Shown here: one piece after another, positions 4,750-22,141 of the stretch
Layout of the letters: each line of letters begins with the position of its first letter
Numbering within the stretch: the stretch's first letter is position 1
DNA from: Methanospirillum hungatei
Lineage (GTDB): Archaea > Halobacteriota > Methanomicrobia > Methanomicrobiales > Methanospirillaceae
NCBI RefSeq assembly: GCF_019263745.1
Contig: NZ_CP077107.1
Location: 1,860,001-1,924,000 of the forward strand
Length of the DNA: 64,000 nucleotides
Direction of reading: 5' to 3'
Position numbers and translations under genes: made by a program
The notes under the pieces: generated by a model
The model's input: the letters and a program-made list of their open reading frames with translations, nothing else
Told to the model about the DNA's origin: nothing
Database searches by the model: none

Positions 4750-5805
4750 TCATCCATAATTTTTCTTGTAAAAACTCTGGTATTCACCGGAGATCACACT
4801 TTTCACCCAATTTCGATGTACCAGATACCATTGGATTGTGTTCCGGATTCCTTCTTCAAAAGAAGTTTCTGGTACCCACCCTAATTCCCGCTGGATTTTT
4901 GAGGCATCTATTGCATATCTCCGGTCATGACCGAGCCTGTCGGTAACATACGATATCAGGTCTTCATTGATATCCGAATCTCCAGTCATTTCACTAAGAA
5001 ACTGCAATATTGTCTTTACAATAAAGATATTTTCCCGTTCATTTGAACCACCGATATTGTATACTTCACCCGCTTTTCCTTTATGAAAAGCTAGGTCTAT
5101 TGCACGGCAATGATCCATGACATAGAGCCAGTCGCGGATCTGTCGGCCATCTCCATATACCGGAATGGACTGATGATCCAAGGCCCGGGTGATTATCAAA
5201 GGGATGAGTTTTTCCGGGAATTGATATGGCCCATAATTATTCGAGCATCGGGTGATGACCACAGGCATGCTAAAGGTATCATGATATGCTTTTACAATGA
5301 GATCTGATCCTGCTTTACTTGCTGAATAGGGACTATGGGGATCAAGTGGAGTTGTCTCTCTGAAGAGACCATCCGGGCCGAGTGCGCCATAGACCTCGTC
5401 GGTGGATACCTGAAGAAATGTGGTGTTCTCTTTCCATTTTCCATCCCTCAGCCATGCTGTTTTTGCTGCATCAAGGAGCGTATGTGTCCCCAGGATGTTT
5501 GTTCGTAGGAATATGGCAGGATCATGTATGGATCTATCCACATGTGATTCTGCTGCAAAATTGATAACTCCCTGAATGTCATAGCGATTGAATGTAGCTT
5601 TGATCTGTTCAGGATCCGTTATATCTCCTTTCACAAAATGAAATCTCTTCTTCTCCCCTTCTGGGATATTACTTAAATTGTCAAGATTTCCTGCATATGT
5701 AAGAGCATCAAAACCAATTAGGGAGTCACCTGGATGGTCTTTGAGGTACTGGTAGACAAAATTTGAGCCAATAAAACCAGCTACTCCGGTAACAAGAATA
5801 TTCAT
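4750..5805 (-). CDS. rfbB: dTDP-glucose 4,6-dehydratase
   Basis: About 351 residues, an extended short-chain dehydrogenase. It has the NAD-binding GVAGFIGSNF at the N terminus, VSTDEVYGAL and the catalytic YSASKAGSD (Tyr-x3-Lys), and GDGRQIRDWLYV, all typical of RfbB. It converts dTDP-glucose to dTDP-4-keto-6-deoxyglucose, the second step to dTDP-L-rhamnose. The open frame extends seven codons upstream to 5826, but the family starts at MNILVTG, so the ATG at 5805 is chosen; AAGGA precedes it by about 7 nt. It begins just after the stop of rfbD, the last gene of the rfbACDB operon. Confidence 0.93.
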   Translation of the reverse strand: MNILVTGVAGFIGSNFVYQYLKDHPGDSLIGFDALTYAGNLDNLSNIPEGEKKRFHFVKGDITDPEQIKATFNRYDIQGVINFAAESHVDRSIHDPAIFLRTNILGTHTLLDAAKTAWLRDGKWKENTTFLQVSTDEVYGALGPDGLFRETTPLDPHSPYSASKAGSDLIVKAYHDTFSMPVVITRCSNNYGPYQFPEKLIPLIITRALDHQSIPVYGDGRQIRDWLYVMDHCRAIDLAFHKGKAGEVYNIGGSNERENIFIVKTILQFLSEMTGDSDINEDLISYVTDRLGHDRRYAIDASKIQRELGWVPETSFEEGIRNTIQWYLVHRNWVKSVISGEYQSFYKKNYG

Positions 5806-5806
5806 G

Positions 5807-6655
5807 TTATATCCTTCCAATTTCATGTAAAAAGCGATCGACTGCGTCCTGCCATGAAGGCATAGTGTATCCCATTACCTGGGTAATTCCAAAGTTATCA
5901 AGTGCTGAAAAACTGGGACGAATGGCGGGTGTTTTAAATTCACCACTTTTTCCAGGAACAAGATCCCCTGTCCATCCTATTTTTTGAAGGATGTATGAAG
6001 CAAAATCGTATCTTGAACAAAACCCTGCATTGGTGCAATGATATAATCCATATTGACCGGTTTTAATGAGATCAAGAGTCGCTTTTGCAAGATCATAAGT
6101 ATAGGTTGGTGATGATATCTGATCATCGACAACGGTAATTAAATCCTGTTTTTCACTCCATTCCAGAACCTTTTTGACAAAATTCATGTTTCCAGACCCA
6201 AACACCCATGAGATTCGAATGAGATAATAGGAATGTGCATGCCTCAAAACCTGCTGCTCTCCCAGGAGTTTGCTCTCCCCATATTTGCTTATTGGTGTGG
6301 GAAAGTCTACAATTGTATATGGTCTATCTATCTGACCATTAAAGACATAATCCGTAGAATAATGGACCAGAACTGCACCGACCATGTTCGCTGCCAGGGC
6401 AAGGTTCTTCGGTCCTGTTCCATTAACAAAAAATGCCTTCTCCCATTCTTTTTCTGCCATATCAACAGCATTGTATGCAGCACAATTAACAATGAAATCA
6501 GGGTGAGTTTTACTCACATACTCAAGCACAGTATAATAATCAGTGATGTCAAGATCCTGGGAACTACATGGCAGGACTTCATATCGACTTCTTCTACATA
6601 AATTCGTCATATCCTGACCAAGCTGACCATGGGCACCAGTAATGAGCAGTTTCAT
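5807..6655 (-). CDS. rfbD: dTDP-4-dehydrorhamnose reductase
   Basis: 282 residues with the NADPH-binding GAHGQLGQD at the N terminus, STDYVFNG (about residues 104-111) and the catalytic-type YGESKLLGE (Tyr-x3-Lys). These are diagnostic of RfbD/RmlD, which reduces dTDP-4-keto-L-rhamnose to dTDP-L-rhamnose in the last pathway step. The length is normal for the family. It lies 6 nt after rfbC and abuts rfbB, so it is translated from the same polycistronic message. Confidence 0.93.
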   Translation of the reverse strand: MKLLITGAHGQLGQDMTNLCRRSRYEVLPCSSQDLDITDYYTVLEYVSKTHPDFIVNCAAYNAVDMAEKEWEKAFFVNGTGPKNLALAANMVGAVLVHYSTDYVFNGQIDRPYTIVDFPTPISKYGESKLLGEQQVLRHAHSYYLIRISWVFGSGNMNFVKKVLEWSEKQDLITVVDDQISSPTYTYDLAKATLDLIKTGQYGLYHCTNAGFCSRYDFASYILQKIGWTGDLVPGKSGEFKTPAIRPSFSALDNFGITQVMGYTMPSWQDAVDRFLHEIGRI

Positions 6656-6661
6656 GATCTT

Positions 6662-7240
6662 CTAATCCTGGTTGTATAGAAAAGGTGATTTAAGTTCAGC
6701 AAGAGTTGGGTGAATGGTGTCTTTTTCAGATAATATTGGAGATTTTAAACCAATAACGTCAAGGGGCCAGGGTATGGAAAGGGTTGGATCATTCCAGTGG
6801 AGTCCTGCATCTCCCACAGGATAATAGAAATCAGTAACTTTGTACATCACTTCAGTATTATCCTGCAAAACAAGAAATCCATGCGCAAACCCGGTTGGAA
6901 CAAAAAGCATCGCTGGATGTTCCTCACTGAGGATTACTGCAAAATGTTCTCCAAAGGTTGGGGATCCTACCCGGATATCTACCGCTACATCATAGATAGA
7001 ACCCTTTAGGACACGGACCAGTTTTCCCTGTGCATGAGGGTATTGATAATGAAGACCACGAAGCACACCTTTTTGCGACTTTGAATGATTATCCTGGACG
7101 AACTCGTCAATAATACCTGCCTGAGAGAAATCATTTTTATTGTAACTCTCCACAAAGAATCCCCGCGAGTCTTTAAAAAACTGGGGTTCCATAAGAAGGA
7201 CTCCATCAAGAGTTGTTTGTTTTACGGTAATTTTTCCCAT
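6662..7240 (-). CDS. rfbC: dTDP-4-dehydrorhamnose 3,5-epimerase
   Basis: 192 residues, the normal length for RfbC. The cupin-fold signature VLRGLHYQ with the catalytic His and GFAHGFLVL are present, as is DSRGFFVESYN near the N terminus. The enzyme epimerises C3 and C5 of dTDP-4-keto-6-deoxyglucose. Its ATG at 7240 directly follows the rfbA stop at 7241-7243, so the two genes are tightly coupled. Confidence 0.93.
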   Translation of the reverse strand: MGKITVKQTTLDGVLLMEPQFFKDSRGFFVESYNKNDFSQAGIIDEFVQDNHSKSQKGVLRGLHYQYPHAQGKLVRVLKGSIYDVAVDIRVGSPTFGEHFAVILSEEHPAMLFVPTGFAHGFLVLQDNTEVMYKVTDFYYPVGDAGLHWNDPTLSIPWPLDVIGLKSPILSEKDTIHPTLAELKSPFLYNQD

Positions 7241-8125
7241 TTATTCCCTTCTATTTCCATTGGCAAGAGCAATCAGGTATTGGCCATATTCAGTTTTATC
7301 CAGACAATTTGCCAACTCTAAAAGTTGATTGCGGGTAATATACCCCTGCTGGTATGCGATCTCTTCAATACAGGCTACGTACAGTCCTTGTCTTTTTTGA
7401 ATTGTCTCTATGAATTGAGCGGCTTCAAGGAGAGAGTCATGAGTCCCGGAATCAAGCCATGCCATCCCTCTACCAAAAAGTTCCACCTTCAGGTTTCCCT
7501 TTTCCAGATATTTTTTATTTACATCAGTAATCTCAATTTCTCCACGTGCTGAGGGTTTCAGATTTTTCGCAATGGATACTACGTCATTATCATAGAAATA
7601 TAAACCAGGAACAGCAAAGTGGGATTTTGGTTTTTGGGGTTTTTCTTCAATTGAGATGGCGTTTCCATCCAAATCAAATTCGACAACACCAAATGCTGTG
7701 GGATCTCGGACATAATATCCAAAAATTGTTGCTCCGCTTTCATGTGCCACAGCCCGTTTGAGAATTTCAGAAAAGTGCTGACCATAAAATATGTTATCAC
7801 CCAATATCAGGGCAACCCGGTCAGAACCAATAAACTTTTCTCCAACAATAAATGCATCTGCGAGTCCTCGTGGCTCCTCCTGGATTGCATAAGAAAGAGA
7901 GAGGCCTAATTGTTTCCCATCTCCAAAGAGTTCCTCATATAGTGGAAGATCACGAGGGGTAGAGATGAGCAAAATCTCTTTTATCCCGGATAACATGAGA
8001 ATGGAGAGGGGATAATAAATCAGAGGTTTATCATAAACCGGAAGCAGGTGCTTTGATATTGTCTTTGTCAAAGGGTACAGTCGAGTTCCTGCTCCTCCGG
8101 CAAGAATAATTCCTTTTATCGTCAC
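7241..8125 (-). CDS. rfbA: Glucose-1-phosphate thymidylyltransferase
   Basis: 294 residues, first gene of the dTDP-rhamnose operon. The nucleotidyltransferase signature [11 protein letters not shown] is at residues 10-20, followed by [17 protein letters not shown], and ILGDNIFYG carries the metal-binding Asp; all are typical of RfbA/RmlA. It joins dTTP and glucose-1-phosphate. The start is a GTG at 8125; no in-frame ATG is close and the sequence from residue 4 (KGIILAGG) matches the usual N terminus. No Shine-Dalgarno is visible and a TATA box lies about 20-25 nt upstream, suggesting a leaderless message. Confidence 0.92.
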
Positions 8126-8188: not shown

Positions 8189-9331
8189 ATGAACATTTAT
8201 GCTTCATTACACCGATTAATAATTCAGATTTGTGTGAAAGTCGCTATTTTTCATGACTATTTTTCAACTATTGGCGGGGGTGAAAGAGTGGTTATGGCAA
8301 TTGCAAATTGCCTTCATGCAGATATCTATACTACTGATTGTTCAATGCCAGAATGGTTTGATCCTTTGAAAAAAACTCATTCATTAGGAGAAGTATCAGA
8401 AAAGCCTTTTTTGAGACAGATGGGAGCGGCGAAACTGTTTTGGCAGAGCGATCTGTCAGATAAGTATGATATGTTTGTTTTTAGTGGAAACTGGGCTCAT
8501 CATGCCTCCCGAAATCATAATCCTTCACTTTATTACTGTCATACACCAATAAGGGCACTCTATGATCTGTACCCGGTTTTTCAAAATCGCTTCCCATATC
8601 CGATTAGAACCGCATTCTCGAGTTGGGCATCGGTCATGAGAGTCCTGGATAGGCAATCAATAAAGAAAATTGATGGCATTGTTGCAAATTCGAAAAATGT
8701 TCAAGGACGAATCAGACAATATTACTTCCGTGAAGCCCCTGTCATATACCCTCCAGTTGATACGTCCCTTTATTCCTGTCGAGAGTGTGAGAACTATTGG
8801 TTGTCAGTAAATCGTCTTTATCCGGAAAAACGGATTGATCTTCAGATTGAAGCATTCTCCCATATGCCTGACCAAAACCTGATCATTGTTGGCGGTACAA
8901 GTTCAGGAGATCATGCAGCTCCGTACTCTCAATATATCAGAAGAATCGCCGATACGCATAGCAACGTCACAATTCTTGGTCAAATTCCGGATTTTGAATT
9001 AATAAATCTTTATTCACACTGCCGAGGACTCATATGTACAGCGATTGATGAAGATTTTGGAATTACTCCATTAGAAGCAATGGCGAGTGGAAAACCAGTT
9101 ATCGCCGTTGCAGAAGGGGGATTTGTTGAGACTGTCACCCCGGAATGCGGGAAGTTAATACAACCTGATGTGAAATCAATTATTGAGGCAGTGGAAAAAA
9201 TATCCCGTCATCCGGAAACATATCTTGAAGCCTGTAAGATGAGAGCATCTGAATTTGATATTAAGATCTTTAATACTGCTATCATCAATGCAGTGACAAA
9301 AACTTATGAAACATGGTCACATTCAGTATAA
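8189..9331 (+). CDS. GT4-family glycosyltransferase
   Basis: 380 residues. The N-terminal Rossmann half holds VAIFHDYFSTIGGGERV and the C-terminal half the GT4 signature EDFGITPLEAMASGKPV with the E-x7-E catalytic/donor-binding pair, preceded by VNRLYPEKRIDLQIEAF. It transfers a sugar from a nucleotide donor during glycan assembly; substrate unknown. Family members normally begin at the residue equivalent to the GTG at 8234 (VKVAIFHDY), so the true start may be there rather than the ATG at 8189. It begins the plus-strand export cluster and overlaps the next gene by 19 bases. Confidence 0.85.
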   Translation: MNIYASLHRLIIQICVKVAIFHDYFSTIGGGERVVMAIANCLHADIYTTDCSMPEWFDPLKKTHSLGEVSEKPFLRQMGAAKLFWQSDLSDKYDMFVFSGNWAHHASRNHNPSLYYCHTPIRALYDLYPVFQNRFPYPIRTAFSSWASVMRVLDRQSIKKIDGIVANSKNVQGRIRQYYFREAPVIYPPVDTSLYSCRECENYWLSVNRLYPEKRIDLQIEAFSHMPDQNLIIVGGTSSGDHAAPYSQYIRRIADTHSNVTILGQIPDFELINLYSHCRGLICTAIDEDFGITPLEAMASGKPVIAVAEGGFVETVTPECGKLIQPDVKSIIEAVEKISRHPETYLEACKMRASEFDIKIFNTAIINAVTKTYETWSHSV

Positions 9332-10269
9332 TTATTCCGAACTATAACGGGATTGCATTTCTTGGACCATGTATTGACTCTATACTTGCCCAAGAATTTC
9401 AGGACTTTGAAATAATTCTAGTAGATAATGCATCAAAAGATAGAAGTGTATCGTTTGTTCGTGTAACATATCCAGATGTTCAAATAATCATGAATCATCA
9501 GAATCGCGGATATGCAGGAGGGTGTAATGATGGTGCCCGGGTAGCAAAAGGTGATTTTTTTCTTTTCCTGAATACTGACACAACGCTCCACCCACAATTC
9601 CTAATAAAAATACATGAAGGAATATCTGAATATCCTAATTATGGGATGTATGCACCGAAAATGCTGTATCCAGATGGAAGAATTAACTCTACTGGTATAT
9701 GTTTCTCGCTATCCGGAGCAGCCTGGGACCGGGGAATGGGAGAAGAAGATACCGGACAATATAACAATTCTGAAGATATCCTCGGACCATGTGGAGGAGC
9801 AGCAGTGTTTAGAAAAGAGACTTTTTTTGATGCTGGTGAATTTGATGATGATTTTTTTTTATTTATGGAGGATGTCGATCTTGTCTTCCGGGTACAATGT
9901 GCAGGATGGAAATGCAGATACATACCAGATGCCGTGGTGTTTCATCATCACGGAGGAACAGCCGGGGTTGATTCCGACATTACAATATATTATGGAAATC
10001 GAAATATTCTCTGGTATCCAGTCAAGGTTTTTCCATTATGGTTATTGTTATTATCTATGCCATGGATAATTGGGCGGACAATCGGAATAATTATTTATTA
10101 TACATTTCATGGAAAAGGGAAAATTGCAATCCAATCTAAGTGGGATGCGCTCAGGGGCCTTTTTTTAATGGTAAAAAAAAGAAGGTATATTAGCCATGCT
10201 CATTTTCAAATTTCTAGTATCCGACACTGCTTTTTTGGTTTCGCATTCAATAATAAAAGATTTTTATAA
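9313..10269 (+). CDS. GT2-family glycosyltransferase, rhamnosyltransferase-like
   Basis: 318 residues. The N terminus FSIIIPNYNGIAFL, then LVDNASKDRS, FLNTDTTLHP (the DxD-type motif), GPCGGAAVFRKETF and FLFMEDVDLVFRV are the ordered motifs of the WcaE/rhamnosyltransferase-like GT2 branch. A hydrophobic stretch near residues 232-258 may contact the membrane. Given the rhamnose operon 1 kb away, a rhamnosyltransferase role is plausible but not proven. It overlaps the upstream GT4 gene by 19 bases and shares one base with the next gene. Confidence 0.85.
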   Translation: MVTFSIIIPNYNGIAFLGPCIDSILAQEFQDFEIILVDNASKDRSVSFVRVTYPDVQIIMNHQNRGYAGGCNDGARVAKGDFFLFLNTDTTLHPQFLIKIHEGISEYPNYGMYAPKMLYPDGRINSTGICFSLSGAAWDRGMGEEDTGQYNNSEDILGPCGGAAVFRKETFFDAGEFDDDFFLFMEDVDLVFRVQCAGWKCRYIPDAVVFHHHGGTAGVDSDITIYYGNRNILWYPVKVFPLWLLLLSMPWIIGRTIGIIIYYTFHGKGKIAIQSKWDALRGLFLMVKKRRYISHAHFQISSIRHCFFGFAFNNKRFL

Positions 10270-10805
10270 TGATACAAAAAATTGATATGAATAAGTTAAA
10301 AATAAATTCATTTCCATTAGTCAGCATTGTAATTCCAAATTATAACGGTCTTCAATATTTGGAGAGATGTCTCAATTCAGTTCAGAATCAATCTTACACC
10401 AATACAGAGACGATATTTGTTGATAATGGATCTGTTGACGAAAGTTGTGATTACGTCGCAAAAAATTTCCCTTGGGTTTTGATAATAAAAAATTCAAAAA
10501 ACCTCGGATTTTCAGGCGGAGTAAACACTGGCATTCGGGCATCGAAGGGTGAATATATTTTTACTCTCAATACTGATACAGAACTTGATCCGGATTGTCT
10601 TTTGCATTTAGTTCATGAATTAGAATTATTTCCCAATGTTGGATTATGCGGGCCGAAGGTACTGTTCTTTGATGGAAAAATTAATTCGACGGGGTTGAAT
10701 AAAATTCTTACTAAATGTAAAGCAATTTCAAGAGATTTAGTATTGTTTACAAAAATGTTTGATGGTGTTAATCCTTCATCACGGATATTATTATCCCCTA
10801 ATTAG
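10269..10805 (+). CDS. Truncated GT2-family glycosyltransferase
   Basis: 178 residues, homologous to the N-terminal half of its upstream neighbour: VSIVIPNYNGLQYLERC, VDNGSVDES, NLGFSGGVNTGI and LNTDTELDPD are present. The sequence stops shortly after KVLFFDGKINSTG, so the acceptor-side block with the ED catalytic-base motif, found at about residues 155-200 in the neighbour, is missing. It probably lacks activity and may be a decaying duplicate of the 9313 gene. The next gene starts 12 bases downstream, so translation coupling may have preserved the reading frame. Confidence 0.7.
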   Translation: MIQKIDMNKLKINSFPLVSIVIPNYNGLQYLERCLNSVQNQSYTNTETIFVDNGSVDESCDYVAKNFPWVLIIKNSKNLGFSGGVNTGIRASKGEYIFTLNTDTELDPDCLLHLVHELELFPNVGLCGPKVLFFDGKINSTGLNKILTKCKAISRDLVLFTKMFDGVNPSSRILLSPN

Positions 10806-10817
10806 GAAGTTTTTAAG

Positions 10818-11597
10818 ATGGCAATTTTTAATCATAGTAATTTATTATGGAATTTCGTTAAAAGAGACCTACAACAACGCTATGTTGGTTCTCTTCTTGG
10901 TATTTACTGGTCATTTATCAATCCTCTCGTTACATTAATCATTTATATCATTGTTTTTGGTTTTTTTTTAAAAATGAGAATTCCAGGAAGTGACAGTATC
11001 TTTGATTTCTCCCTCTACTTCGCTGCAGGGTTTCTTCCTTGGGTTGCGTTTCAGTCCACGGTAATGAGAGCATCCCAGGCAATTATTGATAATAAAAACT
11101 ATATCAAAAAAGTGCCATTTCCCAGTGAGATATTTCCGATCTATATTACCATATCAGAATCAATCAACCTCGTAATCGGTCTTTTGATATATTTCCTGAT
11201 CTTTTTTACTCTCAAGGGAATTCCGGGGATTATGGTTCTGATTCTACCTTTTCTTATCATTCTACAAATATTTTTTACTCTGGGTTTTTCTTTCCTGTTC
11301 TCAGCTGCAACTGTTTTTTTCAGGGACATTCCACAGATAATAAATTCAGTATTTCAGGTGTGGTTCTGGGTTACTCCAATTGTGTATGTTATTACCATTG
11401 TGCCTGAAGAGATCAGGTGGATACTCTATCTGAATCCCCTGTATTATATTTTGGAATTTTATCGGGATTCACTACTTTATAATACATTTCCTGATATGAT
11501 GAATATGGGAGTTATTATACTTATTACAATTGTGCTCTTCGCTCTCTCTCTATATATATTTCGCTCTGTTAAGCGGGGGTTTGGTGAATTAATATGA
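10818..11597 (+). CDS. ABC-2 type polysaccharide/polyol-phosphate export permease (Wzm/TagG-like)
   Basis: 259 residues with six hydrophobic segments. The N-terminal LLWNFVKRDLQQRYVGSLLG and IYWSFINPL are hallmarks of the ABC-2 polysaccharide export permease family, as is the near-terminal LNPLYYILEFYRD. It forms the membrane channel that moves a lipid-linked glycan across the membrane, powered by the ATPase encoded next, with which it overlaps by 4 bases (ATGA). A weak AGGA precedes the ATG. Confidence 0.9.
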   Translation: MAIFNHSNLLWNFVKRDLQQRYVGSLLGIYWSFINPLVTLIIYIIVFGFFLKMRIPGSDSIFDFSLYFAAGFLPWVAFQSTVMRASQAIIDNKNYIKKVPFPSEIFPIYITISESINLVIGLLIYFLIFFTLKGIPGIMVLILPFLIILQIFFTLGFSFLFSAATVFFRDIPQIINSVFQVWFWVTPIVYVITIVPEEIRWILYLNPLYYILEFYRDSLLYNTFPDMMNMGVIILITIVLFALSLYIFRSVKRGFGELI

Positions 11598-13318
11598 ATG
11601 AATATGCCATTGAAGTAAATAACCTTTCAAAGATGTTTAAATTGTATCCATCTCAGGGAAAACGACTACTTGATTATGTTTCTTTCGGTAAAAAGAAATA
11701 TTATCAGGAATTCTGGGCACTCCAAGATATTTCCTTTACCGTGCCCAAAGGATCTACATTCGGCATTCTCGGGCAGAATGGGTCAGGAAAAAGTACTCTC
11801 CTCTCAATCCTTGCCGGAGTATTAGAGCCATCCGGAGGTTTTTTTTTGGCAAGGGGGAAAGTATCTGCGATATTGGAATTAGGTGCCGGGTTCCATCCGG
11901 AGTTTACCGGACGAGCAAACGTGTACATGTATGGCTCGATTATGGGTCTTTCGAAAGAGGAGGTTGATAAGCGGATGTCAGATATAATCTACTTTTCAGA
12001 ACTTGGTGATTTTATCGACCAACCTCTCCGTACATATTCATCAGGTATGTATGCCAGACTTGCATTCTCTGTTGCGGTGAATGTAAATGCAGATATTCTT
12101 ATTGTTGATGAAGCACTGGCTGTCGGGGATGCACTTTTTCAGCATCGATGTTTTCGTAAGATCCACGAAATGAAAGAATCCGGAAAAACAATCCTTTATG
12201 TTGGTCACGATACTGAAGCAGTCCGGGGCCTGTGTGATCATGCAATGATTCTGGATGGGGGACGTATGCTTGAATTAGGGGATTCAGCGATGATTGCAAA
12301 TAAATATCTAGCCTTGATTGCTGAACGTGAGCAGAAATATTATGAAGCCAATCTTCAGGAGTATGGAGAAAAACCGGATGAGAATTGGGAGACAATATAT
12401 AATTTCATTGATCACCTGGCAAAAGCGGATAAGAAGATCCAGACACCTGAAAGTATTCGGGAATTGCGAGTTGATATAAAAAATGCACCAAGAAGAACAA
12501 TCTTTGCTCATCCCCCTTCTGAGTTACAGTACCGTGTTCCGGTAAATCCTGGGACCATGTTATCATTTGCGATCGGTATTTATCCAAGTGCATACGATTT
12601 TATTGCTCATGGGATGCGTTTCTCTGTGATAATCAATGATGATGTGGTTTTTTCTCATGTCCTTGAACCTCATGAGAATACATCCGACCGGGGCTGGCAT
12701 AACCAGATGATCAGTCTTTCTGCATATGAGGGAAAAGATGTAATTATCCGGTTTATTACTGAGGGTTCCCAGCAGGATATCAGTTACTGCTGGGGAGGGT
12801 GGGGATGGCCTGTATTGTTATGTCCAATTAATCCAAAAGTGAGTCAGAATTTAGAAAGACCAAAGATAAGGACCGGGACCCGTAGGATTGAAATTATTGA
12901 AGCGAAAATATGTGATGAGAAGGGATTATCAGTTTCTTCAATTGAATATGGAGATTATTTTTATATCCACATGATAATTAAGGCAAATGAATCTATTAAT
13001 GAACCAATAACAGTTGGTACAACAGTTCGAAATAAGCACGTTACGATAACGGGAATCAACACGTTATGGGGAAAATGTGATATTAAATCTTTAGAGAGGA
13101 ACGAACAATTAAAAGTGTCTTTCAAATATCATGGTATATTAACTTCCGGTATTTATTTTATTACACCAGCAGTTGCTCTTGCTGATAATAATTCTAATGA
13201 AATCGAAAGATTTGATCGATTTGAAGATGAACTAATATTAAATATTAAATCTAAAATGAAATTTGAAGGATTTGTAAATCTTTCAGATGGAATAATAATA
13301 GGATCAGAAAATAATTAG
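11594..13318 (+). CDS. ABC transporter ATP-binding protein, Wzt-like with C-terminal glycan-binding domain
   Basis: 574 residues. Residues 1-240 are the nucleotide-binding domain: Walker A GQNGSGKST (about 60-68), signature YSSGMYARLA (about 148-157), Walker B ILIVDEALAVGD (about 168-179). The C-terminal about 140 residues (from RTGTRRIEIIEAKICD) match the Wzt C-terminal beta-sandwich that recognises the modified end of an O-antigen. Between them (about 290-415) lies an extra beta-rich segment with GWHNQMISLSAYEGKDVIIRF, resembling jelly-roll carbohydrate-binding modules. Standard Wzt proteins are about 400-450 residues, so this one is larger. It overlaps the permease by 4 bases. Confidence 0.88.
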   Translation: MNEYAIEVNNLSKMFKLYPSQGKRLLDYVSFGKKKYYQEFWALQDISFTVPKGSTFGILGQNGSGKSTLLSILAGVLEPSGGFFLARGKVSAILELGAGFHPEFTGRANVYMYGSIMGLSKEEVDKRMSDIIYFSELGDFIDQPLRTYSSGMYARLAFSVAVNVNADILIVDEALAVGDALFQHRCFRKIHEMKESGKTILYVGHDTEAVRGLCDHAMILDGGRMLELGDSAMIANKYLALIAEREQKYYEANLQEYGEKPDENWETIYNFIDHLAKADKKIQTPESIRELRVDIKNAPRRTIFAHPPSELQYRVPVNPGTMLSFAIGIYPSAYDFIAHGMRFSVIINDDVVFSHVLEPHENTSDRGWHNQMISLSAYEGKDVIIRFITEGSQQDISYCWGGWGWPVLLCPINPKVSQNLERPKIRTGTRRIEIIEAKICDEKGLSVSSIEYGDYFYIHMIIKANESINEPITVGTTVRNKHVTITGINTLWGKCDIKSLERNEQLKVSFKYHGILTSGIYFITPAVALADNNSNEIERFDRFEDELILNIKSKMKFEGFVNLSDGIIIGSENN

Positions 13319-13327
13319 GTGTTACAA

Positions 13328-14704
13328 ATGTTAGATTGGACTGGAGAAAGATATTTACCTTATATTGATTTTTGGGATGTAGAGATACATTATGAACACC
13401 TGCATCGTTATGCCTTTGCATCGCACCTTGTTCGTGGCAAAGATGTCCTGGATCTTGCATCAGGTGAAGGATATGGTAGTTATATACTTGCCAGAGAAGC
13501 AAGCAAAGTTGTTGGAATTGACATTGATCCAGAATCAGTCAGACATGCTGAAAACCGTTACTTTAAAGCAAATCTTGAATATATCCAAGGATCAATATGC
13601 AATGTTCCAATCCCCGGAGAAGGACTTTTTGATGTCATAGTCTGTTTTGAAGCAATGGAACATATTGAGAATCATGAACAGCTGGTTTCTGAAATAAAAC
13701 GGCTTTTAAAAAAGGATGGGCTGATTATTATCTCAACACCAAATAAACAGGTATATACAGATGAACCTGATTATCACAATCCATTTCATGTAAAAGAACT
13801 CTATTTCAATGAATTTAAACATCTTCTTAAGAATTATTTCTCGGATGTTGCGTTCTTTGGGCAAAGGGTATTAGCAGGATCACTTCTTTGGAGTCTATAT
13901 CCTCAAGGGAACTTTAATGCCATCGATTTTAAGATGAAAAGAGATGAGAATTCCTTTAATTTCACTGAAGATGATAATAATATAGTATACTATGTTGCAA
14001 TTGCATCAAATAGAGATTTAGGTGACCTTAAAAGCACACGCAGTTGTTGTATTGATATATCTAACACCCTGATTTCAAAGAAAAATGCCCACATAAAGCA
14101 GATACAGGGGGACTGTGATAACCGAGTTCAGGACTACGAAAACAGGATTCTGGGCTACGAAAGCCGTGTTCAGGACTACGAAAACAGGATTCTGGGCTAC
14201 GAAAGCCGTGTTCAGGACTACGAAAACAGGATTCTGGGCTACGAAAACCAAGTTCAGGAGTACGAGGCTCATATTCAGGGCTACGAAAACCAAGTTCAGG
14301 AGTACGAGGCTCATATTCAGGGCTACGAAAACCAAGTTCAGGAGTACGAGGCTCATATTCAGGGCTACAAAAACCAAGTTCAGGAGTACGAGGCTCATAT
14401 TCAGGGCTACAAAAACCAAGTTCAGGAGTACGAGGCTCATATTCAGGGCTACAAAAACCAAGTTCAGGAGTACGAGGCTCATATTCAGGGCTACGAAAAC
14501 CAAGTTCAGGAGTACGAGGCTCATATTCAGGGCTACAAAAACCAAGTTCAGGAGTACGAAGTAAAAATTACACAATTAAATCAAGAGAGAGAAGATCAAG
14601 TAAGTCAATTATTACAGGAACTTAGTAGATTTAAAGATAGTATAATATGGCAATTATTAGTAAAACTCCATAATATTAGAGGAAATTTAAATTCTAAAAG
14701 TTAA
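13328..14704 (+). CDS. SAM-dependent methyltransferase with long heptad-repeat coiled coil (WbdD-like candidate)
   Basis: About 458 residues. Residues 1-210 are a class I methyltransferase: VLDLASGEGYGSYIL (motif I), VVGIDIDPESV (motif II), FDVIVCFEAMEHI and DGLIIISTPNK. From about residue 270 follow ten 14-residue repeats, then a polar helix and the C-terminal KDSIIWQLLVKLHNI. The repeat places I/V and Y alternately 3 and 4 residues apart, a regular coiled coil. The frame is open from a GTG at 13319, but AGGTG at 13317-13321 lies 6 nt before the ATG at 13328, so that ATG is chosen. Directly downstream of Wzm/Wzt-like genes, it resembles bacterial WbdD, which caps and measures export-ready chains; no kinase domain is visible. 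Confidence 0.8.
   Translation: MLDWTGERYLPYIDFWDVEIHYEHLHRYAFASHLVRGKDVLDLASGEGYGSYILAREASKVVGIDIDPESVRHAENRYFKANLEYIQGSICNVPIPGEGLFDVIVCFEAMEHIENHEQLVSEIKRLLKKDGLIIISTPNKQVYTDEPDYHNPFHVKELYFNEFKHLLKNYFSDVAFFGQRVLAGSLLWSLYPQGNFNAIDFKMKRDENSFNFTEDDNNIVYYVAIASNRDLGDLKSTRSCCIDISNTLISKKNAHIKQIQGDCDNRVQDYENRILGYESRVQDYENRILGYESRVQDYENRILGYENQVQEYEAHIQGYENQVQEYEAHIQGYENQVQEYEAHIQGYKNQVQEYEAHIQGYKNQVQEYEAHIQGYKNQVQEYEAHIQGYENQVQEYEAHIQGYKNQVQEYEVKITQLNQEREDQVSQLLQELSRFKDSIIWQLLVKLHNIRGNLNSKS
14135..14554 (+). repeat. Ten tandem 42-bp repeats encoding 14-residue double heptads
   Basis: Ten in-frame copies of 42 bases. The first two units read YENRILGYESRVQD, the third is a hybrid, and the last seven follow YEAHIQGYENQVQE with E/K variation at one site. 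The late units are almost identical at DNA level, which points to recent unit duplication or conversion. Because 42 is a multiple of three and lacks stops in other frames, two other long ORFs appear over the array. Confidence 0.97.
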
Positions 14705-14818: not shown

Positions 14819-17800
14819 ATGAGTAAACACACCTATATCCAGTTCATTACTTTTATTCAGGGATGCCAAGACTATAGATATATAAAAAAATCAATATATT
14901 TTGATCCCAACTGGTATACTAGTAAATATCGTGATGTCGCGGTTTTTGGGATTAATCCGGCATGGCATTACGCACACTATGGATGGCGTGAACATAGGAA
15001 CCCCGGCCCCAATTTCTCTACACAATTTTACCTCAATAATTATCCAGATATTAAGAAGGCAGGAATTAATCCACTTATCCATTATGAGAAGATTGGTTTC
15101 AGTGAGGGGCGATTACCTAAACCAGATCTTCTAGGATTGAATAGAGATAATAAAGTTCATTCAATCAAATCTTTTACATCACAATCTGTAACTATCATGG
15201 AGGATGTCGAACAGAAAATAAATCACAGTAATATCCAATCTGTTGATATCATTAAAAAGAATGTCACAGATACTGTCGGATGGCAAATTTTTCTCTTTTT
15301 AAAAAGAAAATTTTTTCATTTTTTATGGCACCCGATATCCAATTTAATTGAGAGAAATATCTCTCTTTTTCATGATGGACTAATAATTCTGAAAAAAGAT
15401 GGTTTCAAGGCATTAATTATTGCTGCCAAGAGGCACATAAAAAATTGCAAAAATCCAAAATATACCCAATTTATAGGGAAAAGAGATGGTTTTGGGGAGA
15501 AATATTCAATTAATCCCACCCAATTCATAATGTTAACTGATAAAAAAATAGTTGTACATGCCCATGTTTATTACATTGATTTGTTTGATGAAATCTGCGA
15601 ATTTTTACAAAACATTCCCTACAATTTTACATTACTCATCTCTGTTACACAACATGAACATAAACAAGTAATTACTGAAAAGTTAAAACAAATTCCACAT
15701 CTGGAATATTCGATTATAAGAGTAGTGGAAAACCGTGGACGAGACCTTGCGCCACTTTTTGTTGAATTTGAATCAATCATTAGGGAATATGATTACATCT
15801 GCCACATTCATACAAAAAAATCATTATACAGCGGGAAAGAACAAAAAAACTGGCGAAAACATCTTTTTGAAGGTGTACTCGGCTCAGAACAACTCATTCG
15901 CGCCATTTTTACTGCATTTCTAAAAGATCCGAAATTAGGCATAATATATCCTGAGATTTTTCCAGAACTGACATATATCGCATGTACTTGGTTATCAAAT
16001 AAAAATCTAGGATCAATAATTGCAAATCGGTTAAACATTCAATTTGATCCCGATATTTATTTTGATTACCCTATAGGTTCGATATTTTGGATAAAGCGCG
16101 AAGCATTAGAACCATTATTAGACTTAAATCTCCAGTTAACTGATTTTCCTGAAGAATCAGGCCAAAATGATGGAACTCTGCAACATGCTCTTGAAAGATG
16201 TTTTGTTTTATCAGCACAAAGTAAAGGATTTCATCATTTAGTAGTAACAAATCCAAAACTACTGCATTTAAGTTATAAAAGTAGTAAAAATTTTCAAAAA
16301 TATTTTTGTCAACCATCAATTATTGAGATTCTTCCATTTATATCCGTTGTCTCCTTTGATCTCTTTGATACTCTGCTGATAAGACCTTTCGCAACACCAC
16401 ATATGGTATTCAGTTACCTTGAAGAGCGAATCTTCTCAGAATATGGTATTAAGGGGTTTAAAAATTTACGACAAAAAGCAGAGAGTTTCGCTCGTAAAAA
16501 GAAAAATTACCAGGGTGATGTAAAACTTTCAGAAATTTATGCAACCCTATCAGAAATTTCCCCAATTGATAATAAAACGGCATCTGAAATGCTAAACTTG
16601 GAATTCTCCACGGAACTGGAAATTCTTATCCCCCGAAAAGAGGTTATTGATGCCGCTAGAGAAGCAAAAAATCTAGGAAAACGCTTGATTCTAATATCTG
16701 ATACCTATTTTGAAGAGACTCATATCAGGCATATTCTCGAAAGTAAAGGTATTGATTTTTTTGACAAACTATATTTATCCAGTGAAACAGGGAAAAGAAA
16801 AGATAGGGGGGATTTATGGGATTATGTAATTGAATCTGAAGGTCTAATTCCGGATAAATATTTGCATGTTGGAGATAATGAAGAAACTGATTGGCAAAGA
16901 CTCTTTGATAAAGGATACGGCATTATTATTCATGTAATTCGTCCAACTGCACTTTTTCAAATGACAGATTTTGGGGCACAATTATGGTCAACCAGTGATC
17001 CATACAAGAACTGGAGAGATAACCTTCTTTTCGGCAAGTATGCAAATTTTTTTTGCTTAAAACCAAACAATAATCGAATGTTCTCATCTTCTTTATCAAT
17101 TGAAGAACCCTATTCTTTTGGGTACATTGTTTTCGGTCCTATAATTTTTAACTTTATTGTGTGGCTGATAAAAAATTCACAGAAAAAGAGGTGTGATCAT
17201 CTCTGGTTTTTAGCCAGGGAGGGACACTTATTACATAGTGCATATATGTTAGTGGTTAACCATCTAAAAAAAACAGATGAGAATGTAAAATATCCAACCA
17301 GTGAATATTTTTTATGTTCGCGGCGTTCAGTAACTTTTCCTTTATTACAAATGGAGTCAGATCTCCATATTCTGCTAGATGGAGAATATAGAGGAAATTT
17401 GCGAGATTTTTTTACTAAAAGATTAAATGTCTCCTCATTATCAAATATTGAGGATATTCTTGGATCACAAATCCTTGAGATGAAGATCTCATTACCGGAG
17501 GATTATACCATATTATTTGGACATTTACAAAAAGTCTTACCTCAATTATTAGTGGAAGCTCAAAAAGAACGTGAATTATTTCTTGCTTATTGTCATAGCA
17601 TGGGTTTTGATGAAGAAGCACAGATAGGAGTTGTCGATCTGGGATATTCAGGGACAATTCAAAAAGCTCTGATGGAACTACTATGTTCAGATATCCATGG
17701 ATATTATTTTATTACTTCAAATTATTCTAAAAAAGTAAATCGAGCAACAGTTTTTGAAGCATATTATGGAAAAATTTTGGATCCTTCTGATATCAGACAA

Positions 17801-18199
17801 TATCCACTCTTTATGTATAGTCTGTTACTTGAGGCAGTTTTAACCAGTCCGAAAGGGCAGTTAATCAGGTTTTCATCTGGTTTATCCGGAGATATTTATC
17901 CGGTTTTCAAAGAAGCAGGAAAGTCACAAATTGAGTTCACTCGAATTGATCAGATTCATAAAGGAATACTGACATTTATTGAGGAGATGTTGGATCAATT
18001 CGGGGATTATGCATTGGAAATTGAATTCCCGATACAAAATGCTCAGAGATGTTTCATAGATGTTGTTAATGGGGCTATAGATATTGGAGGATTGAAAGGC
18101 ACTTTATCAGTAGAGGATGATCATACAGGGATGGGCGAGATTAATGTTTTAAAACATTACAACGATGTGTTAAGACAACATAATCCTCATGATAATTGA
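14819..18199 (+). CDS. Multidomain RgpF-like / HAD-fold polysaccharide protein
   Basis: 1126 residues. Residues about 25-85 contain two copies of a short FDP.WY...YRDV...GINPAWHYAHYGWREHRNP-type module seen at the start of many glycosyltransferases. Residues about 240-480 match the rhamnan synthesis protein F family (VVHAHVYYIDLFDEI, NRGRDLAPLF, HIHTKKS, YPIGSIFWIKREAL). Residues about 510-690 form a HAD-like domain: FDLFDTLL (nucleophile Asp motif), ISDTYF and GDNEETDW. The remaining 400 residues carry FLAREGHLL and VVDLGYSGTIQKAL, a C-terminal region often paired with such HAD domains. It probably acts in assembling or modifying the exported glycan. It is the last gene before the mobile-element zone. 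Confidence 0.75.
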   Translation: MSKHTYIQFITFIQGCQDYRYIKKSIYFDPNWYTSKYRDVAVFGINPAWHYAHYGWREHRNPGPNFSTQFYLNNYPDIKKAGINPLIHYEKIGFSEGRLPKPDLLGLNRDNKVHSIKSFTSQSVTIMEDVEQKINHSNIQSVDIIKKNVTDTVGWQIFLFLKRKFFHFLWHPISNLIERNISLFHDGLIILKKDGFKALIIAAKRHIKNCKNPKYTQFIGKRDGFGEKYSINPTQFIMLTDKKIVVHAHVYYIDLFDEICEFLQNIPYNFTLLISVTQHEHKQVITEKLKQIPHLEYSIIRVVENRGRDLAPLFVEFESIIREYDYICHIHTKKSLYSGKEQKNWRKHLFEGVLGSEQLIRAIFTAFLKDPKLGIIYPEIFPELTYIACTWLSNKNLGSIIANRLNIQFDPDIYFDYPIGSIFWIKREALEPLLDLNLQLTDFPEESGQNDGTLQHALERCFVLSAQSKGFHHLVVTNPKLLHLSYKSSKNFQKYFCQPSIIEILPFISVVSFDLFDTLLIRPFATPHMVFSYLEERIFSEYGIKGFKNLRQKAESFARKKKNYQGDVKLSEIYATLSEISPIDNKTASEMLNLEFSTELEILIPRKEVIDAAREAKNLGKRLILISDTYFEETHIRHILESKGIDFFDKLYLSSETGKRKDRGDLWDYVIESEGLIPDKYLHVGDNEETDWQRLFDKGYGIIIHVIRPTALFQMTDFGAQLWSTSDPYKNWRDNLLFGKYANFFCLKPNNNRMFSSSLSIEEPYSFGYIVFGPIIFNFIVWLIKNSQKKRCDHLWFLAREGHLLHSAYMLVVNHLKKTDENVKYPTSEYFLCSRRSVTFPLLQMESDLHILLDGEYRGNLRDFFTKRLNVSSLSNIEDILGSQILEMKISLPEDYTILFGHLQKVLPQLLVEAQKERELFLAYCHSMGFDEEAQIGVVDLGYSGTIQKALMELLCSDIHGYYFITSNYSKKVNRATVFEAYYGKILDPSDIRQYPLFMYSLLLEAVLTSPKGQLIRFSSGLSGDIYPVFKEAGKSQIEFTRIDQIHKGILTFIEEMLDQFGDYALEIEFPIQNAQRCFIDVVNGAIDIGGLKGTLSVEDDHTGMGEINVLKHYNDVLRQHNPHDN

Positions 18200-18544: not shown

Positions 18545-20269
18545 CCCACGTTCCGCAGATCCTTTTATAAAATTCAATTAATCATAAAAGCTTAACTATA
18601 AATACTTCCTGATCGATCTCTATGGATAAACGATGAATTTCGATGATATCTTCGTATCAGATTCAGATCGGACAATCGGTCATCTTGGACTTGTTGCTGG
18701 TAGTTATGATGAACTGAATATTGGTCAGATAATTGATAATTTCATTCCAAAAACAGGTCCACATCACTTGACACATGGCGATATTGTTAAAGCAATGGTC
18801 ATAAATGGCCTAGGATATATTGAACGGCGGCTTTATCTTTTTCCTGCATTTTTTACCGATATCTCCCTCACTCGTCTTTTTAACAAGGAGATCACTCCAA
18901 CACAATTGAATGATGATCTTCTGGGTCGGACTTTAGATGCAATTCATGCGTTTGGAGAAACCGAAATGTTCAATCATATTGTATCGGAATGCCTTGAAAG
19001 AGACCAATTCGCAATCAATTTAGTAAATAACGATACTACCAACTTTAGTGTCCATGGAAACTATGACTCAGACAGCAATACTGAAGAAATTGAGATAACG
19101 CATGGTCATCCAAAGGATGGTCGCTGGGATCTTAAACGATTTGCACTTGGAATGGCAACCAATCAACATGGAATTCCTCTTCTTCTTCAGACATTCTCAG
19201 GGAATGAGTCTGATAAAAAAGCACTCCTTGAGATCATAACGAAAGTTAAAAAGAACCTCAATGTTGCAGAAAAAGTCATTCATGTAGCAGATTCAGCATT
19301 CTATACTGAAGAAAATCTTCAGACGCTCGGCTTTCATACCTTCTGGATATCACGTGTTCCCTTAACAATATCTGAAGCTGAGTCTCTTCGAAAAACTTCT
19401 GAATCTTTCACTTCCTGCGAAGACAGTCGTTATTCATACTATTGCTCATCATCCAATTACGCCGGAGTCAGACAAACTTGGATTGTCTTTCATTCAAGTG
19501 AACAACAAAGAAAAAAAGAGAAGGATTTTGATAAAAAAGTAGAGAAAGAACTCATACGAGCTCAAAAATCCCTAAAACACCTGGCCTGTAAACGTTTTGC
19601 CTGTGAACCCGATGCCAGAAGTGCTGCTGCCGAATGGGTTTCGAAACACCCGTGGGTAATTTTTGATACTTGTTCTATAAAACAAGTTCACGAGCGATTA
19701 GAGAAGAAACGGGGACGGCCTGGAAAAGATGAAACGCTCATACTGAAATATGTTATTGAGGCTGATATCTCACTAAATTTTACTGAATTAGAAAAAGAAA
19801 AGTCAATTCTTGGCAGATTTATTATTGCGACAAATGATCTGGATTTGGATCCTGAAACCACGTTAAACTATTATAAAGGTCAATCACAGGTCGAAAAAGG
19901 ATTCAGGTTTCTGAAGGATAAAACTTTCCGGGTATCTGACGTATTTCTTAAAAATACTGAGAGAATTCAGGCTTTGGCAATGATCATGGTTCTTTGTCTA
20001 TATGTATACGCCGTAACAGAGTACAAGTTACGGAAAAGTCTCAAAGAGACTAATGAAACAGTGCCGAATCAAACAGGTAAACCAACTCAAAAACCAACAT
20101 TACGCTGGATTTTCTTTTTATTTCGAAGAATTAGAGAACTCTCACTTCGGATTGATGGCAGAATCGTCACCAAAGTTCTCAATTTGGATAAAACGATTCG
20201 GAAATTATTAGATTGCTTGGGACGCATCATGAAAAATATTATTTCACATAACAAACTGCGGAATGTGGG
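18545..20269 (+). mobile_element. ISa copy 1 (IS1634-type), 1725 bp
   Basis: Terminal inverted repeats CCCACGTTCCGCAG (left) and CTGCGGAATGTGGG (right), flanked by the 6-bp direct repeat ATTGAT at 18539-18544 and 20270-20275. It encodes a DUF4277/DDE transposase and lies inside the group II intron maturase gene. A second, split ISa reconstructs to 1726 bp, showing that this copy has lost one base. Confidence 0.92.
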
Positions 20270-20426
20270 ATTGATGTTTCAGAGAACATTTTTAGTGTCT
20301 GTTCCTCCGAACAAAATACCCAGTTCCGATTCCCTTTCTTTGACCAGTATCGTTGTGCTACCCATTTGCGTCCCTTATCAGGATGCCTTCGTTTCGCCCA
20401 TTGCCACAGTTGATTCCATAGAATAA
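18633..20426 (+). CDS. ISa transposase with frameshifted C terminus
   Basis: A DDE transposase of the IS1634 type. The N terminus has the DUF4277 region (TIGHLGLVAGSYDEL, ERRLYLFPAFF), then DTTNFSVHG, a likely catalytic Asp region, GNESDKKALLEI and HVADSAFYTEENL, and the YKGQSQVEKGFRFLKDKTF block carrying the catalytic Glu. Compared with the copy at 39721-40100, one base is missing near 20200. The last 16 codons are therefore out of frame, and the ORF runs beyond the IS end at 20269 to 20426 in maturase DNA. The native protein would be about 538 residues; this 597-residue version may still work but has a foreign tail. Confidence 0.85.
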   Translation: MNFDDIFVSDSDRTIGHLGLVAGSYDELNIGQIIDNFIPKTGPHHLTHGDIVKAMVINGLGYIERRLYLFPAFFTDISLTRLFNKEITPTQLNDDLLGRTLDAIHAFGETEMFNHIVSECLERDQFAINLVNNDTTNFSVHGNYDSDSNTEEIEITHGHPKDGRWDLKRFALGMATNQHGIPLLLQTFSGNESDKKALLEIITKVKKNLNVAEKVIHVADSAFYTEENLQTLGFHTFWISRVPLTISEAESLRKTSESFTSCEDSRYSYYCSSSNYAGVRQTWIVFHSSEQQRKKEKDFDKKVEKELIRAQKSLKHLACKRFACEPDARSAAAEWVSKHPWVIFDTCSIKQVHERLEKKRGRPGKDETLILKYVIEADISLNFTELEKEKSILGRFIIATNDLDLDPETTLNYYKGQSQVEKGFRFLKDKTFRVSDVFLKNTERIQALAMIMVLCLYVYAVTEYKLRKSLKETNETVPNQTGKPTQKPTLRWIFFLFRRIRELSLRIDGRIVTKVLNLDKTIRKLLDCLGRIMKNIISHNKLRNVGLMFQRTFLVSVPPNKIPSSDSLSLTSIVVLPICVPYQDAFVSPIATVDSIE

Positions 20427-22141
20427 AATCCATTCTGTTAAATGTTTTCGTTGAGGCGATATGTCGGTGATAATTTGTCCACCCAATAATAATTGGGTTG
20501 AGTTTCTGAATCACCTTGTCCTGATTCCAGGCGGCAGCTTTAAGAAGAACCAATCCGATTTTCCGGGTAATCTTCTTCACAGACTCTTTGGATGGCTTCA
20601 TCAGGAGAACCCCTCTGTATTTACGTATATTAATACCCAAGAAATCAAACCCATCATTGATGTGCGTGATTTTCGTCTTGGATTCAGATAGTGTTAATCC
20701 CCTTTTTGCAAGAAAGTCGCTGATAAGGGATTTTACTTCTTCAGCAATTTCTTTGGTGGGAGTAGTGACCACGAAATCGTCCGCATATCTGACAAAATGT
20801 ACTTTCATCTTTGGATACCTTTCCATAATCAGATCTTCCATTCCATCGAGTGCCATATTAGCAAGGATCGGTGAAATGATGCCACCTTGTGGTGTTCCTT
20901 GATCGGTTGGGAACAAGTTCTGTTCGTAGATATATCCTGACTTTAAGAACTGGTTTAAGATCGATAAATCAATCAGAACATTTTCTTTAAGCCATTGATG
21001 AGAGATGTTGTCAAAGCATCCTTTAATGTCGCCTTCAAGTATCCATTCTGCCCCGGTTTTATGCCATAGGCAAACGTATAGGTACTGAGATGCATCTTGA
21101 GTACTACGGAACAGTCTAAATCCGAATGACCGAGAATCAGCAAGAGTTTCTGCAACTGGTTGAAGAGTAAAGGCATATAATGCCTGCATTGCCCGGTCGT
21201 ACATTGTTGGGATAGAAAGAGGACGTTTCGTATCTTTACCAGGTTTAGGAATATATATCCGCTTTAAAGGTTGAGCTTTGTATTGTTTATCTGAAAGACT
21301 TAATGCTGCCTGCATCTTATCTTTCGAAGAGGTCCAAAGTTCACCATCAATACCTGGAGTTCTCTTCCCACGGTTGTGAGTGACAATCCGTATCGCAAGG
21401 AGTTTTGCGTGGAATGAATGAGAAAGAAGATACTGAAGCCGTTTCGCTAAATTATACTTACCTTCATTAACTGCCTTTGCAATCTGGGTCTGCAGCCTAT
21501 TAACCGTTTCTCTCACATTCTTCCAGTCAATGGAATCCCATTGTTGGGAGAGAGAAATATTTGCACGTTTCTCGCTCTTTGGCGTCGTTGAATGACGTAC
21601 ATTCATAGATTTGCCTCCCTTCTTTGCCGTAAAGTACCTGCAGCAAGTCAGCACCCTTTCGGGTTGGAGAGACTCCTATCCTGTCAATTGCAGACAGACA
21701 TTTGCTTTTTGCTGCTTCCTCTCCCGTCTATACCTTCAGTTTTTCTCACGAAGTTCTTACCTCATTGAGGAGCATATCCAGGTTACCAAGTTCTGATATT
21801 CAGATAATTCAGATGTTTTAGGAGCCATCTTTAGACCGGGAACCATCTGTCCGTTCGACATATTGTGTGGGTTACCAATACATCCTGATTCCATACCTTT
21901 TGGTTCAAGCGTAGTCAACCAGTTTTCGCTTGTCGCCGATTACGATCCATACGATGATTCAACATATGTTTCTCCATGACATCCTTTCCCTTGCAGATGA
22001 ACAAGTTCTGGTTACCTGTTTTCCCCACGTTGTCCCATAGGCTTCACACCATTCCGTTACCAGAATCGCATGCTATGGTAGGGATATTCCGAGCGGATGG
22101 AATAGCATTACGCAATCTGAAATACCAGCTACATGTCACAC

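What the first reader, a model, noticed from the sequence alone, without database searches (positions are those of the whole stretch)
13328..14704. Possible archaeal WbdD-like chain terminator with an expandable molecular ruler
The methyltransferase directly downstream of the Wzm/Wzt-like exporter has ten near-identical 14-residue double heptads with I/V at one core position and Y at the other. At 1.5 A per residue the 140-residue array would be about 21 nm if helical. In E. coli O9a, WbdD methylates/phosphorylates the chain end, its coiled coil sets chain length, and the Wzt C-terminal domain recognises the cap (established knowledge). Here the Wzt-like protein also has such a C-terminal domain. 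The inference is an archaeal system in which a methylated end stops growth and the number of 42-bp units tunes glycan length, perhaps varying between cells. It lacks the kinase domain of WbdD.
Basis: partly seen in the sequence, partly recalled or inferred. Interest (0 to 1): 0.85.

Follow-up and report, generated by a model that had tools for sequence, protein, structure and literature searches.

The report
Archaeal glycan chain terminator with repeats
A methane-producing archaeon encodes, next to a sugar-chain exporter, an enzyme that probably caps growing surface sugar chains and carries a long rod built of ten near-identical 42-base repeats; related archaeal cassettes carry rods made of different repeats or different enzyme heads, so rod length may be an evolvable ruler for sugar-chain length, although the length control itself is untested.

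Summary
ORF 13328-14704 is a class I methyltransferase followed by ten 42-bp (14-aa) units plus half a unit, with V/I at heptad a and Y at d. AlphaFold2 gives one helix, residues 247-437 (about 28 nm). The gene abuts Wzm/Wzt (with Wzt_C) and precedes an RgpF-type protein, the wzm-wzt-wbdD-wbdA order of E. coli O8, whose WbdD also lacks a kinase. Best reading: a kinase-less methyl-capping chain terminator with a coiled-coil spacer. It works like WbdD O8 or WsaE but is not a close sequence relative of WbdD.

Comparison adds most. A syntenic Methanoperedens cassette has a 460-aa homologue whose coil is five near-perfect 105-bp repeats of unrelated sequence. Other Methanomicrobiales pair the same exporter with other heads (methyltransferase-kinase-like, or another methyltransferase) and coil repeats of 84, 63 or 21 bp. 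Clean arrays in terminators are all multiples of 21 bp (p about 1e-4). So head swapping and in-register re-amplification of the coil recur.

Variation between cells and length control are untested; in E. coli O8 the gene has one length in all full-length rows examined. Archaeal homologues of one known terminator were already noted (Kelly 2024). New variant of a known kind.

The parts
4750..8125 (-). RmlB (4750-5826), RmlD (5807-6655), RmlC (6662-7240), RmlA (7241-8125): dTDP-rhamnose supply
   Evidence: Pfam
8189..10805 (+). Glycosyltransferases: GT4-type 8189-9331, GT2 9313-10269, short GT2 10269-10805
   Evidence: Pfam
10818..11597 (+). Wzm-like ABC-2 membrane subunit
   Evidence: PF01061 2.8e-18
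11594..13318 (+). Wzt-like ATPase; ATP-binding domain, a middle region of about 170 residues shared with sister cassettes, and Wzt_C at residues 425-563
   Evidence: PF00005 and PF14524; identities
13328..14704 (+). Proposed chain terminator: methyltransferase plus coiled coil, 458 aa (alternative GTG start 13319)
13376..14053 (+). Methyltransferase head, residues 17-242
   Evidence: Pfam PF08241 1.9e-21; AF2
14066..14638 (+). Predicted continuous helix, residues 247-437
   Evidence: AF2
14123..14542 (+). Ten 42-bp units, three of one block and seven of another; a half unit follows
   Evidence: TRF; units
14642..14689 (+). C-terminal helix, residues 439-454, with the S-I-I-W-Q-L-L-V-K-L-H motif shared with terminators bearing other heads; candidate membrane or polymerase contact
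   Evidence: AF2; sequence comparison
14819..18199 (+). RgpF plus HAD protein, 1126 aa; candidate polymerase component
   Evidence: PF05045 2.3e-54; fused to a homologous methyltransferase-coil in L045

Best explanation
The ORF is the chain terminator of an ABC-transporter-dependent surface polysaccharide, probably rhamnose-containing. Inferred mechanism: the protein oligomerises through its coil; the C-terminal end of the coil sits at the membrane and holds the polymerase (RgpF-like protein and/or the GTs); the N-terminal methyltransferase lies about 28 nm away and O-methylates the non-reducing end once the chain is long enough to reach it; the methyl cap stops growth and is recognised by the C-terminal domain of Wzt for export. 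The coil is renewed by in-register amplification of heptad multiples, so its length can change in whole-heptad steps over evolution. Shown here: domain anatomy, helical prediction, gene order, homologues, repeat statistics. Inferred: activity, oligomer, capping, ruler action, Wzt_C recognition.
For: Head, coil and short C-terminal helix. Gene order wzm-wzt-MTase-polymerase as in E. coli O8, whose protein has the same layout without a kinase (PMC3482155). Rml genes and Wzt_C in the cluster. Relatives fuse head and coil to RgpF, WbsX or GT2 modules. Syntenic Methanoperedens cassette with a homologous head and an unrelated five-fold 105-bp coil, 460 vs 458 aa. The same exporter type in other Methanomicrobiales is followed by methyltransferase-kinase-like or other methyltransferase heads plus coils, as in known O7-type terminators (PMC11231755). 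Arrays in terminators are multiples of 21 bp, 8 of 8 vs 5 of 25 elsewhere. Wzt_C is 65-84% identical among cassettes with kinase-like heads but 35-40% to the one with another head, whose ATPase is 85-93% identical.
Against: No biochemical evidence. The head is not specifically close to WbdD. Window and L050, with the same class of head, share only 28% in Wzt_C, and several relatives have Wzt without that domain. Tail lengths of unfused relatives range widely, 55-221 aa. WsaE methylates independently of chain length in vitro (PMC2943079). The oligomer could not be modelled.
Confidence: 0.68

Rival explanations
1. The protein is a scaffold and accessory methyltransferase that assembles the polymerase at the membrane but does not set chain length; the coil only holds the complex together.
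For: In E. coli O101/O162 a methyltransferase-coil protein is needed for one segment of the glycan, and its ruler role is only proposed (PMC13168486). Coil lengths in the family range widely.
Against: In characterised systems with this layout the coil sets length and the head terminates (PMC11231755). The same exporter type is paired with several alternative heads at the same place, which suits a capping role.
Confidence: 0.17
2. The protein is a terminator, but the near-identical array is a neutral product of slippage or unequal exchange in heptad-encoding DNA; the coil must only be long enough, and the unit number has no tuned meaning.
For: Low-complexity heptad DNA is prone to amplification; arrays of other genes occur in the same loci, including one in this window (42388-43179). 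Unit sequence and number differ between cassettes.
Against: Arrays are denser in terminator ORFs (9 per 116 kb vs 32 per 1,220 kb) and keep the heptad register. Window and L050 tails have nearly the same length, 213 and 215 aa, despite unrelated units (only two cases).
Confidence: 0.12
3. The cluster is decayed or silent, and the ORF has no present function.
For: Head absent from the other genomes of the genus; transposase and group II intron maturase genes just downstream; one GT2 ORF is short (10269-10805).
Against: The main ORFs are open, abutting and full length; Rml genes, exporter and polymerase-like gene are complete.
Confidence: 0.03

Closest known systems
E. coli O8 WbdD (kinase-less), strain IAI1 ECIAI1_RS10615
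   Same: Gene order wzm-wzt-methyltransferase-large GT; methyltransferase, coil, S-x-S-W motif, no kinase
   Different: Only 27% identity over 106 aa of the head; different length (425 aa) with extra residues after the coil; no near-identical array; mannan rather than probable rhamnan; bacterial
E. coli O9a / K. pneumoniae O3 WbdD
   Same: Head, coil, C-terminal region, Wzt_C exporter; established coiled-coil ruler (PMC3482155, PMC11231755)
   Different: Has a kinase domain that the window protein lacks; weak sequence match, 6e-4
Geobacillus stearothermophilus WsaE
   Same: Kinase-less methyltransferase that caps a polyrhamnan; rml genes, wzm and wzt in the cluster, wzm/wzt/wsaE overlapping (PMC2943079)
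   Different: Fused to two rhamnosyltransferase domains; here the polymerase-like protein is separate; sequence not compared here
K. pneumoniae O7 ORF6 and its reported Methanoculleus marisnigri homologue
   Same: Terminator head, coil, polymerase; archaeal homologue already reported (PMC11231755)
   Different: Head is methyltransferase-kinase with an added carbohydrate-binding domain; GT modules fused; no tandem array reported in the text searched
E. coli O101/O162 MT protein
   Same: Methyltransferase plus coil, no kinase described (PMC13168486)
   Different: Its loss removes one glycan segment; ruler role proposed, not shown; sequence not compared here

Membership tests
Coiled-coil chain terminators of ABC-transporter-dependent glycans (functional class: WbdD O8/O9a, WsaE, O7 ORF6) | N-terminal terminating enzyme domain | tested here: met
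   Class I methyltransferase; enzymatic role not tested
Coiled-coil chain terminators of ABC-transporter-dependent glycans (functional class: WbdD O8/O9a, WsaE, O7 ORF6) | Extended coiled coil after the catalytic domain | tested here: met
   Heptad a/d pattern and predicted helix 247-437; monomer model only
Coiled-coil chain terminators of ABC-transporter-dependent glycans (functional class: WbdD O8/O9a, WsaE, O7 ORF6) | Oligomer (trimer in WbdD) | not testable with these tools
   No multimer prediction available
Coiled-coil chain terminators of ABC-transporter-dependent glycans (functional class: WbdD O8/O9a, WsaE, O7 ORF6) | C-terminal membrane-associated amphipathic helix and polymerase recruitment site | tested here: inconclusive
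   Short helix 439-454 with a motif shared across archaeal terminators with other heads; binding not tested
Coiled-coil chain terminators of ABC-transporter-dependent glycans (functional class: WbdD O8/O9a, WsaE, O7 ORF6) | Encoded with Wzm/Wzt and a polymerase | tested here: met
Coiled-coil chain terminators of ABC-transporter-dependent glycans (functional class: WbdD O8/O9a, WsaE, O7 ORF6) | Caps the non-reducing end and sets chain length | not testable with these tools
   Needs experiment
WbdD sequence family | Head closer to WbdD than to other methyltransferases | tested here: not met
   phmmer 6e-4 to WbdD against 6e-14 to 3l8d; WbdD not within E 1e-6 in the profile search nor among the 50 best Foldseek rows
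WbdD sequence family | Kinase domain (O9a type) | tested here: not met
   O8 WbdD lacks it too
Wzt with C-terminal carbohydrate-recognition domain (upstream partner) | Wzt_C, PF14524 | tested here: met
   1.2e-21; the only one in the genome
Variable-number (phase-variable) repeat locus | Copy number differs between strains or cells | not testable with these tools

The most novel reading that the evidence does not exclude
In methanogenic archaea the terminator coils are evolvable, possibly fast-mutating rulers: unequal exchange between identical 21n-bp units changes coil length in whole heptads, giving heritable stepwise changes in surface-glycan length, while terminator heads and Wzt_C domains are swapped as cassettes.
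Probability: 0.17. Interest if true: 0.85.

Novelty: new variant of a known kind. Interest (0 to 1): 0.6.

Why it matters
Chain termination by a capping enzyme on a coiled-coil ruler is worked out in a few Gram-negative serotypes. Here the same logic appears in archaeal surface-glycan loci, in a kinase-less form, with natural coils built of identical in-register units: a ready-made set of different rulers on the same exporter type (42 bp x 10.5, 105 x 5, 84 x 3.2, 63 x 2.7, 21 x at least 3.5). It offers a natural test of whether coil length in heptads predicts glycan length, and of whether Wzt_C tracks the terminator head.

Tried and rejected
Searched sister species for orthologues to count units: none in the genus, so no strain-level comparison. 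Searched the Methanoperedens family for more copies: only one distant further match, in a different context (L139). Tested whether the head is specifically WbdD by sequence, profile and fold: it is a generic class I methyltransferase with UbiG-like and sugar-methyltransferase neighbours. AF2 of the Wzt C-terminal half was too poor to use (pLDDT 53). Gene tree: heads of archaea and bacteria intermingle; the window is sister to a Methanocorpusculaceae sequence (97/95), most deeper forks unsupported. E. coli O8 used as a test of within-species ruler variation: one length, so no support for variability there. L141 appears mis-assembled after the coil and was not used for coil length. Considered and dropped: a beta or solenoid fold for the repeats (AF2 helix, heptad periodicity); a genome-wide tendency to tandem repeats as the whole explanation. 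No paper in the held library was found to describe tandem repeats in these coils; most subscription papers are not held, including the original ruler paper.

Full report
Observation. The ORF at 13328-14704 (GTG alternative at 13319) encodes 458 residues: a class I methyltransferase, then ten 14-residue units plus a half unit. There are two blocks, three RVQDYENRILGYE(S/N) and seven QVQEYEAHIQGY(E/K)N; the seven differ at a single base, the three at one or two, and the blocks from each other at 11-13 of 42 bases, which suggests two rounds of amplification. The two 21-bp halves of a unit also resemble each other (13-15 of 21), so the array looks built from a heptad. Heptad position a is V/I and d is Y throughout the array.

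Fold. AlphaFold2 with 18 homologues gives a methyltransferase (17-242), one uninterrupted helix 247-437, a break, and a short helix 439-454; confidence is high for the first units and falls towards the end. Oligomeric state could not be tested. There is no kinase domain and no room for one between head and coil.

Surroundings. RmlB, RmlD, RmlC and RmlA (4750-8125, minus strand), three glycosyltransferase ORFs, Wzm, Wzt with a Wzt_C domain, this ORF, and an RgpF-plus-HAD protein form a glycan cluster. Wzm, Wzt and the ORF overlap or abut. This is the gene order of the E. coli O8 locus in strain IAI1 (wzm, wzt, methyltransferase, large glycosyltransferase). The O8 protein is also methyltransferase, coil and an S-x-S-W motif with no kinase; the literature describes O8 WbdD as a simple methyltransferase (PMC3482155), and WsaE as a kinase-less cap-adding methyltransferase for a polyrhamnan (PMC2943079). 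The RgpF part is found fused to a relative of the methyltransferase-coil in a Dehalococcoidia contig (L045), and other relatives are fused to WbsX or GT2 modules, which supports a shared pathway.

Relatives of the head. The head is absent from other genomes of the genus, and only three other genomes of 232 in the order have a match under 1e-40. Named relatives are scattered over archaea and bacteria, and the tree mixes them, consistent with horizontal transfer. The order is Methanomicrobiales: contig lengths of G136 and G342 equal those of the Methanoculleus sediminis and Methanocorpusculaceae records.

The Methanoperedens cassette. Locus L050 has Rml genes, Wzm (59% identical), Wzt (ATPase 76%, with Wzt_C) and a homologous head (51%), followed by a coil of five 105-bp (35-aa) repeats that differ at only a few bases. 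That unit shows only chance-like resemblance to the window unit (19 of 42 bases at best). Total length is 460 against 458 residues, and the tail after the head 215 against 213. Two arrays of unrelated sequence in the same place of the same cassette imply separate amplification. The equal length is suggestive, but n = 2, and tails of other unfused relatives range from 55 to 221 residues.

Same exporter, other heads. Searching with the Wzt C-terminal half found related cassettes in other Methanomicrobiales. In L130, L141, L142 and L143 the next gene has an unrelated methyltransferase followed by a kinase-like segment (57-66% identical among themselves; the segment carries a D-x4-N ... ID motif by eye; no Pfam kinase hit) and a coil. 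In L140 it is a third methyltransferase with a 21-bp array in which the contig ends; the contig of L142 also ends in its coil repeat. L146, in a genome of 2,478,101 bp (from memory the size of M. marisnigri JR1; same genus group as Methanoculleus sediminis), has the L140 type of head, an 84-bp repeat, the motif SVVWRLLMKFHN and fused GT2 modules. The window has SIIWQLLVKLHN and L143 SIVWQLTMKFHY at the same place, so the end of the coil is shared by terminators with unrelated heads. Kelly et al. 2024 already reported O7 ORF6 homologues in M. marisnigri (PMC11231755), so archaeal occurrence as such is not new.

Repeat statistics. In all fetched loci plus the window, TRF arrays of score 100 or more occur at 9 per 116 kb in terminator ORFs and 32 per 1,220 kb elsewhere. 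Among arrays whose period is a multiple of 3, 8 of 8 in terminators are multiples of 21 against 5 of 25 elsewhere, Fisher p = 9e-5; one of the five outside arrays (L146) turned out to be in a terminator, so the contrast is understated. One weak terminator array (L093, consensus 43, 9% indels) was left out. Multiples of 21 are what a coiled coil requires; the result shows that amplification has kept the heptad register, not that it tunes length. The loci are partly related and were selected by homology, so the p-value is approximate.

Wzt_C and head. ATPase identities among cassettes are 71-94%, but Wzt_C identities differ: 65-84% among the four cassettes with methyltransferase-kinase-like heads, 35-40% between these and L140 with a different head, 26-29% to the window. 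This is what recognition of different caps would predict for L140. However, window and L050, with the same class of head, share only 28% in Wzt_C, and several relatives have Wzt without the domain, so the coupling is supported in one contrast only.

Bacterial check of variability. The O8 WbdD gene matched in 302 of 5,426 E. coli genomes over at least 80% of its length; all 59 full-length rows in an evenly spread list show a 1278-bp single-piece match. A coil without near-identical units does not vary there; this neither supports nor excludes variability in the archaeal arrays.

Conclusion. The protein most likely works as a kinase-less methyl-capping terminator with a coiled-coil spacer (0.68 for the whole mechanism; the terminator role alone is more secure than the ruler role). 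By anatomy and gene context it belongs with the functional class of coiled-coil terminators, but not with the WbdD sequence family. The new elements are the recurrent, in-register re-amplification of the coil and the swapping of heads on one exporter type in archaea. Variation between cells remains a hypothesis.

Noticed in passing
window 42388-43179 (ORF 42367-45984, -): Another tandem array: 138-bp unit, 5.7 copies, 98% matches, in a 1205-aa ORF; not a multiple of 21 bp.
   Followed up: no
window 18633-25262: Transposase (DUF4277/DDE) whose 3' end overlaps a group II intron maturase ORF on the other strand (20239-21654), followed by two more transposase ORFs; a similar transposase fragment lies near the Methanoculleus cassette (L040 18203-18967).
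   Followed up: no
window 10269-10805: GT2 ORF of only 178 aa directly before Wzm; looks truncated.
   Followed up: no
window 12329-12850 (Wzt residues about 246-420); also L050, L130, L140-L144: Region between the Wzt ATPase and Wzt_C, conserved among these archaeal cassettes (40-72% identity) and without a Pfam match; possibly a second carbohydrate-binding domain. A similar stretch ends a membrane protein in L146 (8066-10015).
   Followed up: partly
L044 (Methanoculleus sediminis) and L146: Very similar Wzt of 250 aa without Wzt_C, followed by different terminator heads: head swapping also occurs where Wzt has no recognition domain.
   Followed up: partly
L050 5625-6209: 194-aa ORF between Wzm and Wzt that starts like an acylphosphatase and ends in a repetitive coil.
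   Followed up: no
L112 7971-8210 (Methanophagales MAG): Head next to Wzm/Wzt that breaks off after about 60 residues; decayed or frameshifted.
   Followed up: no
L042 3982-8883: 1634-aa ORF in which about 580 residues with apparently two further methyltransferase-like domains precede the head, coil and GT2 modules.
   Followed up: no
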